From IMG/VR virus record IMGVR_UViG_3300028410_000056, positions 1 to 26,770 of that record: a DNA stretch of 26,770 bases; one strand, given 5' to 3'. Of the stretch, positions 1,541 through 4,787 are shown piece by piece (position 1 is the stretch's first letter; the number at the start of each line of letters is the position of its first letter). The notes beneath the pieces are model-generated. The model did no database searches. It saw only the letters and a list, made by a program, of their open reading frames with translations, and was not told the origin of the DNA. The DNA comes from a virus. A program made the position numbers and the translations under genes.

Positions 1541-1609
1541 ATGATTGCATATATACTTATTGTGAGGTTAGAGGTTTACGAAAACGGTATCCTCCGTCAA
1601 TTAGAGTAA
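1541..1609 (+). CDS. Possible 22-aa leader peptide or micro-ORF
   Basis: ATG follows a CTTATAAAATAA leader like those of real genes here and opens 22 codons (MIAYILIVRLEVYENG...) ending in UAA. The composition is hydrophobic then charged and protein-like. However it overlaps the candidate folded RNA at 1568-1630 and lies just before the tRNA-like element, so the reading frame may be fortuitous. Confidence 0.25.
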   Translation: MIAYILIVRLEVYENGILRQLE

Positions 1610-1630
1610 AACACACTCTCTAGCCTCTAA
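1568..1630 (+). ncRNA. Candidate folded RNA element (three-way junction)
   Basis: A 7-bp closing stem (TTAGAGG at 1568-1574 with CCTCTAA at 1624-1630) encloses two smaller hairpins: ACGG/CCGT (1584-1587 with 1594-1597, 6-nt loop) and AGAGT/ACTCT (1603-1607 with 1615-1619, 7-nt loop). The element ends five bases before the long helix around the tRNA-like sequence. It could be a processing signal, a small RNA or chance complementarity; no known family is recognised. Confidence 0.3.
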
Positions 1631-1635
1631 TTAAC

Positions 1636-1764
1636 AGTAATAGTTACAGCTGATGGTGTAGTTAGTAGCTCAGTTGGTAGAGCTTTGTTGCAACAAATAC
1701 ACACCAGGATATGTGGTCACTGGTTCGAGTCCAGTCTACTACACCATCATCTGTAGCTATTGCT
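1636..1764 (+). repeat. Long imperfect inverted repeat enclosing the tRNA-like sequence
   Basis: The arm 1636-1665 pairs with 1736-1764 over 29 positions: 28 pairs including two G.U wobbles (1638/1762 and 1644/1756), one mismatch (1650/1750) and one bulged base (1663). The innermost seven pairs are the acceptor stem of the tRNA-like domain, so the acceptor helix runs on outward for about 22 more positions. The encoded 3' CCA (1744-1746) is buried in this helix by pairing with 1654-1656. Normal tRNA precursors do not have leader and trailer paired over such a length. Confidence 0.75.
1658..1746 (+). tRNA. tRNA-like gene with atypical anticodon region; identity not assignable
   Basis: Clear tRNA parts are present. 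D arm: TA linker, GCTC (1668-1671), loop AGTTGGTA, GAGC (1680-1683). T arm: ACTGG (1719-1723), loop TTCGAGT, CCAGT (1731-1735). Acceptor strand CTACTAC (1736-1742), then A and an encoded CCA (1744-1746). The 5' acceptor strand GTAGTTAG pairs with it if one T (1663) bulges out. The middle is abnormal: 35 bases separate the D and T arms instead of about 23. They contain a perfect palindrome (1684-1697, TTTGTTGCAACAAA) and a CACA/TGTG hairpin (1700-1703 with 1712-1715). No standard 5-bp/7-nt anticodon arm with U33 forms, so I assign no amino acid. It could be a long-variable-arm tRNA, a degenerate tRNA, or a tRNA mimic. Confidence 0.65.
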
Positions 1765-1790: not shown

Positions 1791-2015
1791 ATGAAATTAC
1801 TAAAAAGACTAAGAAGACGAATCTTTATGCTAGGGATAGCTTGTTACGGTCTACCAATGAACGTACTAGCTTACAATCCTACCTGTGTAGCTAATACACT
1901 ACAGCATATCAATGAACTAAACTATGTAATACAGAACGTAGAACTAACTACTCAGAAGAGAATGAGCTACAGACGGAAACTACATAAGACAGTTATGTCT
2001 CTAGAACAATGTTAG
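1791..2015 (+). CDS. Small exported protein with signal peptide (74 aa)
   Basis: ATG 1791 follows an A-rich leader (ACAAAAACAAAAA). The N-terminus is a textbook secretion signal: MKLLKRLRRR, a hydrophobic segment (IFMLGIACYGL), then PMNVLA as a likely signal peptidase site before YNPTCV. The mature part of about 47 residues has two cysteines (one near its start, one as the last residue), which could form a disulfide, and a helical middle. It has no UGA codons and ends in UAG. It precedes a Cys-rich protein and the endolysin, so a role at the cell envelope is plausible. No family is recognised. The longer frame through the tRNA-like region is not used because its start would lie inside that RNA. 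Confidence 0.65.
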   Translation: MKLLKRLRRRIFMLGIACYGLPMNVLAYNPTCVANTLQHINELNYVIQNVELTTQKRMSYRRKLHKTVMSLEQC

Positions 2016-2453: not shown

Positions 2454-2794
2454 AAACCACAACTACTATCTGAATCATTACTATCTGCGTATTATTGATT
2501 TATTTCTTGCTCTCAAACAGCTGAAACACCAGTTCTCCTGGTGGACAGAAGTGTGTAGAGTTTAACGAAACAAAGAAGGTGACAACCAATAAGAAGAACT
2601 ATGATAAATGCGATAGAGAGGAATCTGTCTACAAATCAGAGCGAGGAGAACTAGAATTAATACAGCAAGGTATTAGTGAGCAAGCAGACTGAGTTAGAGC
2701 TATCAAAGAATCATACCCTTTCGACTTAGCTCCTGAGCAAGAGCAAACGAAACTGACTCCTGAACTGACGAAGAATTTGAACCTCATAAAATAG
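2444..2794 (+). CDS. Membrane-anchor protein, probably the N-terminal part of the endolysin (116 aa)
   Basis: The frame opens with MKIKTTTTIG followed by a single transmembrane segment or uncleaved signal anchor (IITICVLLIYFLL, residues 11-23). A Ser/Gly linker and a charged, probably helical region (residues about 35-90) follow before UAG at 2792-2794. Read alone it is a membrane-tethered protein with no domain. The amidase frame immediately downstream has no start codon of its own and lies in the -1 frame. Both frames are open over 2698-2791, so this gene and the amidase are most simply one protein split by a -1 shift. A run A-AAA-UAG at 2788-2794 would allow tandem AAA re-pairing at the stop. 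A sequencing indel is the alternative. Confidence 0.6.
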
Positions 2795-3555
2795 TTATTC
2801 ATCACACAGTTAGTTGAGGAGAGAGATCTTGGGAGAATACCCACAAGAACAAGAGCAAATGAAAGAGTACGTCAGAATTATGAAGCAATATATATTATCA
2901 TATAGTGGTATTCAAGGACTGAACATACAAGCAATATAGGAAATTGAATGAACGGCCTTGGGCTACTAGAGCTAATAATGATTGAATACATATAGCAATG
3001 GAAGGTAACTTCAATGAAGAGAAGCCCACTAAGGAACAGATAAGAATGGTACAGAGTGTGGTCGAGGAGATAAGGATAGAGTTTGGAGATCTAAAAGTAT
3101 ACGAGCATGGTGAACTACAAGGAGAATCCAGTGGATGTGCAGGGAAAAACTTTGATACTAGCCTATTAGCACAGCCAGTAGTCATAGAAGGTAAGGGAGA
3201 CCAAGCCTCTAAGATAGCAAGCTACGCCTACAATATCTGTATGTCTTACACAGGAGACGTTGAGATGATCTACTGATGCAAGGATATGGTGCTCACTTTC
3301 AATGCTGAGAACAGAAACTGGCTATACAATACTGTCTCTGCCAAGAACGAGAATGGCACTAGAGACCATGGTATCTGCCAACTGAACGACAAGTACCATA
3401 CCCCTTTCATATCTACTAGAGAATTTCTGGATGCCTACAGCCAAGTAGACTACTGCTTTGAAGTATGGATTGATGCGAACAGAAAGAAGAAGATGCCATG
3501 GAGAGGCTACTATGTAAAAGAAGAGAGAGGAGTAAATGTAGCTTTTAATTGATAA
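2698..3555 (+). CDS. Endolysin: zinc amidase (Amidase_2/PGRP-like) plus lytic-transglycosylase-like domain; lacks own start
   Basis: The frame is open from 2698 to UAA 3553-3555 with no ATG, GTG or TTG before the conserved core, which begins at PHKIVIHHTVSG (about 2782). Amidase_2 features are visible: the IVIHH zinc histidine, YYHIVVFKDG, ERPWATRANN, the GNFNEEKPTKEQ segment, then VYEHGEL with a second zinc histidine and GCAGKNFD with the zinc cysteine. After a linker, about residues 150-255 of the core look like a lysozyme/soluble lytic transglycosylase domain: LTFNAENRNW with a candidate catalytic Glu and DHGICQLNDKY, comparable to the G-[LIF]-x-QIN motif. The enzyme would cut both the stem-peptide amide and the glycan. 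UGA is read as glycine in TVSGGE, FKDGTYK and NDGIH. Expression probably depends on a -1 frameshift from the upstream anchor frame. Confidence 0.75.
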
Positions 3556-4032: not shown

Positions 4033-4486
4033 AGAACAACTAACCACACGATACCAAGGTCAGTTCGCTAGTAAGGAGTTGAGCTTTGGGTGTAGAATTT
4101 CTTATGACGGAGATTTATGAGGTAGAGAATACTGAAAGTTTGTTTGTCGCTATGACGTAATGAATCCAGACGAGGATATTGAAATACAAATAAGTAGAGC
4201 ACCTAGATTCTATAAGGTATTGAGAGATTCAGGTAATTTTCTTGAACAGTTACTTATATGAAAACATAACTTTGAAAACATAGGACACCCACTAACACGA
4301 GGGAGATTATATCAGGAGCTGTTAGTAAATAAGTATTGTGGTATGACGGAGATATGACAGTTTCTTGATCCCATACTGAGAGAAAAGCTGCGGAAATCCA
4401 GACTCCTAGACAAAACTATCTACGAATGGGTAGAAGTGCCTGAGATCTACGAGATACTTTTATCAATAAAAGATAACTATGAGTAA
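4025..4486 (+). CDS. Hypothetical protein (153 aa)
   Basis: A 153-residue soluble protein ending in UAA. The N-terminal half is beta-like (CRISYDGDLGGREYGKFVCRYDV), the C-terminal half helical (FLEQLLIG..., DPILREKLRKSRLL). Five UGA codons are read as glycine. It overlaps the gene upstream by eight bases, and its own end overlaps the start of the (Gly-X)n repeat gene by eight bases. Its last codons (LLSIKDNYE) include one copy of a 21-bp direct repeat found again at 5189-5209. No family is recognised. Confidence 0.55.
4458..4478 (+). repeat. 21-bp direct repeat, copy 1 (inside a coding sequence)
   Basis: This segment, beginning TTTTATCAATAAAAG, is repeated exactly at 5189-5209. Here it encodes the end of the 153-aa protein; the second copy is intergenic. 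Both copies are directly followed by a gene start (4479 and 5213). Confidence 0.8.
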
Positions 4487-4787
4487 CACTACGCTAGAAG
4501 ACCACAAAACGTGAGAATGAGACTGAGACTGATACTGAGACTGATACTGAAACTGAAACTGAAACTGATACTGAGACTGATACTGAAACTGAAACTGAAA
4601 CTGAAACTGATACTGAGACTGATACTGAAACTGATACTGAAACTGAGACGGATACTGATACTGAAACTGATACTGATACTGAAACTGATACTGAGACTGA
4701 AACTGATACTGAAACTGAAACTGATACTGATACTGAAACTGAAACTGATACTGAAACTGAAACTGAGACTGAGTTACTATCCTTTAA
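4479..4787 (+). CDS. (Gly-Asp/Tyr/Asn)n dipeptide-repeat protein encoded mainly by UGA (102 aa)
   Basis: ATG 4479 overlaps the upstream stop. After an 11-residue head (MSNTTLEDHKT) every second codon from 4512 to 4770 is glycine: 43 UGA and a single GGA (4650-4652). The intervening residues are Glu once, then only Asp, Tyr or Asn, giving a (G-D/G-Y/G-N)43 tract before a short VTIL tail and UAA. The lone GGA in register with the UGA codons is internal support for UGA=Gly. Under the standard code translation would stop after 11 residues. Gly-Tyr/Gly-Asn repeats are typical of flexible, self-associating or elastic low-complexity proteins in general; the role here is unknown. The other two forward frames are also open, a result of the 6-bp period, but would give Thr-Asp/Glu or Lys/Leu/Ile repeats without a start overlapping the upstream stop. 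Confidence 0.6.
4512..4772 (+). repeat. Hexanucleotide tandem repeat (TGA-NAC)n, about 43 units
   Basis: The array is a 6-bp period TGA followed by GAC, TAC or AAC, running for about 260 bp with almost no departures except a GAA at the start and one GGA (4650). Variation is confined to one base of the unit, which changes only Asp/Tyr/Asn in the coding frame. Such an array should be prone to slipped-strand length change in steps of two residues without loss of frame. Confidence 0.9.

What the first reader, a model, noticed from the sequence alone, without database searches (positions are those of the whole stretch)
1636..1764. tRNA-like fold capping a 29-position helix that buries the 3' CCA
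Leader and trailer of the tRNA-like sequence are complementary for 29 positions (28 pairs, two of them G.U) with only one mismatch and one bulge. The G.U pairs are what selection on RNA structure would leave. An unprocessed transcript would be a long rod with a tRNA-like tip, unlike ordinary tRNA precursors. It might be a processing control, a small RNA, a packaging or recombination signal, or a mimic.
Basis: seen in the sequence. Interest (0 to 1): 0.8.

Follow-up and report, generated by a model that had tools for sequence, protein, structure and literature searches.

The report
Phage stalk capped by decoding-dead tRNA
A phage that reads TGA as glycine carries a 28-pair RNA stalk tipped by a tRNA-shaped fold with no usable anticodon; the same build recurs in unrelated phages, including close relatives of lambda where it caps the known RNase III stalk before gene N, so the tRNA shape looks like an exchangeable tip of a message-processing hairpin.

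Summary
In detail: 28 pairs (two G.U), one mismatch, one bulge at 1636-1665/1736-1764, far beyond chance (score 55; 200 shuffles, maximum 46). The tip is tRNA-derived (Rfam 31.2 bits) with intact D and T arms, but the anticodon arm is replaced and CCA is buried, so it should not decode. No orthologue was found in terminase relatives. A pattern scan shows that decoding-dead tRNA-like sequences are common in viral contigs (116; 103 keep the acceptor stem, 2 a normal anticodon arm). Long leader/trailer stalks occur in 5 of 116 (window included) versus 0 of 248 ordinary tRNAs, and in 1 of 4 of a second sample. Four lambdoid genomes carry such a tip on the stalk that sits between nutL and N in lambda, a published RNase III-processed leader; stalk pairs show compensatory changes and near-identical leaders swap tips. 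Best explanation: a leader-processing stalk with an exchangeable tRNA-like cap, 26 nt upstream of a small gene. RNase III cleavage and the cap's role are inferred. YrlA (opposite topology), attP (no nearby integrase) and a decoding tRNA are disfavoured. No description of this arrangement turned up in the papers searched.

The parts
1636..1665 (+). 5' arm of the stalk (leader side), including the bulged 5' acceptor strand GTAG-T-TAG
1736..1764 (+). 3' arm of the stalk: 3' acceptor strand CTACTAC, A73, CCA (1744-1746, paired) and trailer
1668..1683 (+). D arm GCTC-AGTTGGTA-GAGC with the conserved GG, preceded by T8-A9
   Evidence: alignment; (pair probability 0.74)
1684..1718 (+). replaced anticodon/variable region: palindrome TTTGTTGCAACAAA (1684-1697) and hairpin ACCA-GGATATG-TGGT (1703-1717); no 5-bp/7-nt arm with U33
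1719..1735 (+). T arm ACTGG-TTCGAGT-CCAGT
   Evidence: (pair probability 0.73-0.84)
1559..1631 (+). separate stable hairpin just upstream of the stalk (GAGGTTAGAGG.../...CCTCTAATT); role unknown
   Evidence: 236-nt fold z = -6.25
1791..2015 (+). next gene, 74 aa, 26 nt after the stalk, basic then hydrophobic N-terminus (signal-peptide-like by eye); no PHROG match

Best explanation
The element is a structured RNA in the leader of a small phage gene: a 28-bp leader-trailer stalk whose tip is a tRNA-derived fold that can no longer decode. Shown: the stalk, the tRNA-like core, the missing anticodon arm, recurrence of the build in unrelated phages, and use of the same kind of tip on the stalk that precedes gene N in lambda relatives. 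Inferred: the transcript folds as drawn, the host RNase III cuts the long double-stranded stalk (as published for lambda N-leader RNA and for rRNA leader-trailer helices), and cutting changes stability or translation of the downstream gene. The tRNA-like cap is most likely a compact, self-folding end that brings the two arms together and keeps the tip off other RNA; the fact that caps are swapped while the stalk is kept says that the stalk is the main functional part. What the cap adds (modification enzymes, RNase P, decoy) is unknown.
For: Rod beyond chance. tRNA core with abnormal anticodon arm. 116 such tRNA-like sequences in viral contigs; 103 keep at least 6 of 7 acceptor pairs, which the search did not impose; 2 have a normal anticodon arm. 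Strict leader/trailer extension of score 8 or more: 5 of 116 (window, L134, L173, L157, L084) versus 0 of 248 ordinary tRNAs in the same stretches and 0.015% of cross-paired flanks; an independent pattern gave 1 rod (L207, 26 pairs) among 4 true elements. Lambdoid leaders: L153, Salmonella phage P6, E. coli AR_0058 prophage ('tRNA-OTHER'), Hafnia phage Pocitis76 ('tRNA-Gly', next to N) have a tRNA-like cap on the stalk that in lambda, Sf6, Hafnia phage Meifeng and E. coli prophages L205/L206 carries other caps; the L153 gene is N-like (PHROG E 1e-13). Stalk pairs change on both sides (C-G to G-C; G.U/A-U/G-C; the whole inner half in L206) and T-stem pairs of the caps covary. Lambda N-leader RNA processing (Steege 1987) is cited among RNase III targets in PMC5371410; rRNA leader-trailer helices cut by RNase III, PMC10250234. 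SD plus start codon follow the stalk closely in L134, L173 and L153.
Against: No orthologue of the window element was found, so covariation is shown only in distant analogues. Four of the non-lambdoid rods (L084, L157, L129, L207) have no good start codon right after the stalk, so the leader position is not general; enrichment of downstream genes is weak for the class as a whole (17 of 114 versus 20 of 255 ordinary tRNAs). The gene after the window's stalk is not N-like, and no nut-like site or promoter was identified. Transcription, cleavage and the presence of RNase III in the host were not tested. 4 of 115 versus 0 of 248 is a modest contrast, and the controls come from only 45 stretches.
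Confidence: 0.5

Rival explanations
1. A decaying tRNA gene: a captured tRNA that lost its anticodon arm, with flanks that happen to be complementary or arose by a neutral inverted duplication.
For: Anticodon arm abnormal, acceptor strand bulged, no orthologues. Inverted repeats can arise neutrally.
Against: Decay should hit all arms, but D, T and acceptor pairing are kept in 103-115 of 116 such sequences; long stalks recur in unrelated phages and not around ordinary tRNAs; lambdoid stalks and T stems show compensatory changes.
Confidence: 0.15
2. A counter-defence decoy: an uncuttable tRNA look-alike that occupies host or defence enzymes acting on tRNA (anticodon nucleases, modification enzymes), with the stalk protecting its ends.
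For: Elbow kept, anticodon absent or altered in over 100 phage sequences. For YrlA, competitive inhibition of an anticodon nuclease has been proposed (PMC7790460).
Against: No defence or counter-defence neighbour was identified; most such sequences have no stalk; lambda-type leaders swap the cap freely for non-tRNA caps.
Confidence: 0.12
3. A tRNA with an intron in the anticodon arm that is spliced and then decodes.
Against: No 5-bp stem can be made in the window by removing one insert (by eye); the anticodons ARAGORN assigns across the class have no pattern; the acceptor is bulged and CCA is paired; no known intron type matched in Rfam.
Confidence: 0.06
4. A DNA-level signal: attP core or other recombination site that copies a host tRNA.
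For: P22-like phage L has its attP inside a tRNA-like gene next to int (PMC8022706).
Against: No tyrosine integrase in the window record or in L173, L084, L207; in L134, L153, L129, L157 it lies about 5.5-14 kb away. The window record is incomplete, so int could be missing.
Confidence: 0.06
5. A bacterial Y RNA (YrlA) that tethers a Ro60/Rsr protein.
For: YrlA also joins a long end-to-end stem to a tRNA-like domain (PMC8394870).
Against: RF02553 scores 11.2 bits (gathering 69) here. The model runs T arm, closed acceptor hairpin, D arm, a circular permutation, whereas here D precedes T and the stem extends the acceptor. No TROVE protein in 50 related records.
Confidence: 0.03

Closest known systems
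Lambda N-leader RNase III stalk (nutL - stalk - N)
   Same: Long imperfect leader-trailer stalk shortly before a small phage gene; four relatives have a tRNA-like cap on this very stalk or its close variant.
   Different: Lambda's own cap is not tRNA-like; the window has no recognised nut site or N gene, other stalk sequence, other host lineage.
rRNA leader-trailer helices (pre-16S, pre-23S)
   Same: 25-40-bp helix of complementary flanks closing a folded RNA, cut by RNase III (PMC10250234).
   Different: The enclosed RNA is a 70-nt tRNA-like fold rather than rRNA; no evidence that a mature RNA is released.
YrlA bacterial Y RNA (RF02553)
   Same: tRNA mimic with D and T arms and a long end-to-end stem.
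   Different: YrlA is circularly permuted (T arm, acceptor hairpin, D arm); here the order is D then T and the stem is on the acceptor side.
T4 stable RNA rnaC (species 1 RNA)
   Same: Phage RNA with a tRNA-like T arm, annotated only as a small stable RNA, beside phage tRNA genes.
   Different: No tRNA-type D arm next to an acceptor stalk; Rfam tRNA does not match it.
Ordinary phage tRNA genes
   Same: D arm, T arm, acceptor sequence, encoded CCA.
   Different: No anticodon arm; leader and trailer fully paired, which none of 248 ordinary tRNAs shows.

Membership tests
Decoding tRNA | 5-bp/7-nt anticodon arm with U33 and an anticodon | tested here: not met
   best register 2 of 5 pairs, no U33; ARAGORN finds no gene
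Decoding tRNA | D and T arms with loop-loop residues, Rfam tRNA score | tested here: met
   31.2 bits, gathering 29
Decoding tRNA | free or freeable 3' CCA | tested here: inconclusive
   CCA encoded but paired in the stalk; processing unknown
YrlA (RF02553) | score above gathering threshold | tested here: not met
   11.2 bits versus 69
YrlA (RF02553) | permuted order T arm - acceptor hairpin - D arm | tested here: not met
   model order; window order D then T
YrlA (RF02553) | Rsr/Ro60 partner gene | tested here: inconclusive
   no TROVE match in 50 records, all possibly fragments; host genome not available
RNase III-processed leader-trailer stalk | long near-continuous helix of flanking arms (20 bp or more) | tested here: met
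   28 pairs
RNase III-processed leader-trailer stalk | pairing kept by compensatory change in relatives | tested here: inconclusive
   met in lambdoid analogues, no orthologues of the window element
RNase III-processed leader-trailer stalk | cleavage by RNase III | not testable with these tools
   needs RNA
Phage attP in a tRNA-like sequence | adjacent integrase gene | tested here: not met
   none in window; 5.5 kb or more away in other rods; window record incomplete
Intrinsic terminator | GC-rich short hairpin followed by T run | tested here: not met
   no site in 1100-2100

The most novel reading that the evidence does not exclude
Phages share an unrecognised class of decoding-dead tRNA-like RNAs, used as exchangeable caps on leader-processing stalks, in which the tRNA elbow is kept because it recruits host tRNA-handling enzymes to control early phage messages or blunt tRNA-directed defence.
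Probability: 0.25. Interest if true: 0.82.

Novelty: new variant of a known kind. Interest (0 to 1): 0.6.

Why it matters
It links two things usually kept apart, phage tRNA genes and leader-processing hairpins. It makes a cheap experiment possible in lambda relatives: swap natural caps on the N-leader stalk and measure RNase III cleavage and N expression. It also suggests that many entries annotated as odd phage tRNAs ('tRNA-OTHER', 'tRNA-Gly' with a wrong loop) are not tRNAs for translation, which matters for claims about phage tRNA supply and codon usage.

Tried and rejected
Homology by neighbouring proteins (469-1116, amidase 2770-3555) and by the MCP alone: no relatives. DNA similarity of the element to phage records: none; short matches in related records at E 0.01-0.4 are chance-level. 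A helix in the closest terminase relative available at that point, L004 3653-3826, spans the end of the portal gene and the next start codon and is not tRNA-like. L018/L014 and L063 hold other tRNAs, not orthologues. A loose scoring of leader/trailer pairing did not separate tRNA-like sequences from controls; the strict scoring, chosen after that, penalises mismatches and gaps more; both are reported. YrlA searches in 240 Bdellovibrionota genomes found none. SpF41 sRNA (RF02435, 27.4 bits, gathering 52) mainly reflects the shared T arm and closing stem. Six pattern hits spanning two adjacent tRNAs were removed.

Full report
What is there. The window is a virus record of 26,770 bases, probably incomplete, of a tailed phage (terminase, head-tail adaptor, major head protein). 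TGA is a sense codon read as glycine: open frames cover 37% of the window under table 11 and 87% when TGA is read, and one TGA falls on a glycine that is invariant in five terminases (position 224). It is not chance: its helix score is 55, the next best in the window 32, and the best of 200 dinucleotide-preserving shuffles of the window is 46; the fold has z = -4.8.

The tip. Rfam's tRNA model matches 1661-1743 with 31.2 bits. T8-A9, a 4-bp D stem with GG in the loop, and a perfect T arm are present. The anticodon arm is not: after the D stem come a 14-nt palindrome and a weak 4-bp hairpin; ARAGORN finds no tRNA without allowing an intron, and none of three registers tried gives a normal arm. 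The acceptor strand has a bulged T, and A73 and CCA are inside the stalk. The tRNA-like fold and the minimum-energy fold have nearly equal predicted energy (-53.2 and -53.6 kcal/mol), with the outer stalk formed in both. A second stable hairpin lies just upstream (1559-1631).

Relatives of the phage. Searches with the terminase and with a terminase alignment gave 49 related records, mostly fragments. One relative (L062) has a tRNA with a 48-nt insertion in the anticodon loop and no stalk.

A wider class. I asked viral contigs for a standard D arm and T arm separated by 30-59 instead of the usual 26 bases. After removing six pairs of neighbouring tRNAs, 116 sequences remain; 103 keep at least six of seven acceptor pairs and 115 the T stem. 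The search fixed the D arm, the T loop and two bases on each T-stem side; it did not fix the acceptor or the rest of the T stem. Only two have a normal anticodon arm. Phages thus carry many tRNA-like sequences that kept the elbow and acceptor and lost decoding.

The stalk in that class. With strict scoring of pairing outward from the discriminator base, 5 of 116 reach 8 or more (window 17.5, L134 14.0, L173 9.5, L157 9.5, L084 8.5), 0 of 248 ordinary tRNAs in the same stretches do, and 0.015% of flanks paired across loci do. Leaving the window out, 4 of 115 remain. A looser scoring, tried first, did not separate the groups. A second, disjoint pattern gave five loci, one of them a tRNA pair; of the four true elements one, L207, has a 26-pair stalk. 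The stalks are unrelated in sequence, which points to repeated origin.

The lambdoid cases. L153, found by the same pattern, proved to be a lambda relative in which the tRNA-like cap sits between nutL and N, before an N-like gene (PHROG E 1e-13). Its stalk AGCTTTGG-GGTGTG / CACACC-A-CCAAAGCT is lambda's own leader stalk with one changed pair. The mBio paper PMC5371410 lists lambda among RNase III targets and cites Steege et al. 1987 on processing of N-leader RNA; that this stalk is the RNase III site is from my own knowledge of the lambda literature. Salmonella phage P6, the E. coli AR_0058 prophage (annotated 'tRNA-OTHER') and Hafnia phage Pocitis76 (annotated 'tRNA-Gly', but with G at position 33 by my reading) have tRNA-like caps too. 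Hafnia phage Meifeng has nearly the same leader as Pocitis76 but a different, non-tRNA cap, and Hafnia phage yong2 has the Pocitis76 cap in another leader. Lambda, Sf6, L205 and L206 have other caps. Across these leaders the stalk stays paired while letters change on both sides: C-G in lambda is G-C in P6, G.U/A-U/G-C at the sixth pair, and in L206 the whole inner half is replaced by another fully paired sequence; the last may be a module swap rather than stepwise change. The T stems of the caps covary as well (ACCGG/CCGGT, ACCAG/CTGGT, GCTGG/CCAGC).

Mechanism. The most economical reading is that the stalk is the functional part, a double-stranded processing site in a leader, and that the tRNA-like fold is one of several tips that can close it. 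For the window this is an analogy: its stalk ends 26 nt before a 74-aa gene, as the lambda-type stalks end shortly before N and those of L134 and L173 shortly before a Shine-Dalgarno and start codon. Four other rods have no such gene right behind, and for the class as a whole a gene with a Shine-Dalgarno within 80 nt is only mildly more frequent than behind ordinary tRNAs (17/114 versus 20/255). So the leader role is inferred, at about even odds; a decoy role for the cap is not excluded.

Alternatives tested. YrlA, the best-known RNA that joins a long stem to a tRNA mimic, is excluded as a family: 11.2 bits against a threshold of 69, and the model itself is permuted, T arm - acceptor hairpin - D arm, with the long stem on the anticodon side (the last point from memory of the published structure). 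No TROVE protein is found in related records. attP is disfavoured: no integrase near any rod, though some phages do have attP in a tRNA-like gene (PMC8022706). No terminator is predicted.

Novelty. Nine literature searches in the open-access library found no description of tRNA-like caps on phage leader stalks; that library lacks most subscription journals. I rate it a new variant of a known kind (leader-trailer processing stalks; phage tRNA-derived RNAs).

Noticed in passing
Viral-contig loci L075-L194, L207-L211: Over a hundred tRNA-like sequences with intact acceptor, D and T arms and a replaced anticodon arm; some form sequence families (L103/L116/L119/L176; L139/L149/L159/L163/L170). They look like an undescribed class of phage RNA.
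   Followed up: partly
L196, L197, L201, L153, L203: tRNA-like caps in lambdoid N-type leaders are annotated as tRNA-Gly or tRNA-OTHER or not at all; closely related leaders swap caps.
   Followed up: partly
window 1559-1631: A second stable hairpin directly upstream of the stalk; with it the 236-nt region folds at z = -6.25.
   Followed up: no
window 4479-4787: A Gly-rich repeat protein (GNGYGDGYG...) encoded with 43 TGA codons, in an array of 12-18-bp repeats; the 21-bp direct repeat TTTTATCAATAAAAGATAACT flanks the area at 4458 and 5189.
   Followed up: no
L062 1501-1624 and downstream: A terminase relative has a tRNA with a 48-nt insertion in the anticodon loop, followed by an unidentified sequence and what looks like an HNH endonuclease gene (by eye).
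   Followed up: partly
L063 598-668; L018 304-374: Two related phages carry tRNA-Gly(TCC)-like genes with the unusual T loop TGCAATT; L018 also has a second tRNA-like sequence just before it.
   Followed up: no
L207 798-960: A stalk-capped tRNA-like sequence followed at once by another tRNA-like D arm; T arm of the first plus D arm of the second match the permuted YrlA model (26.2 bits).
   Followed up: no
L004 3653-3826: A 27-nt-arm helix spanning the end of the portal gene and the start of the next gene, possibly a translation-control stem.
   Followed up: partly
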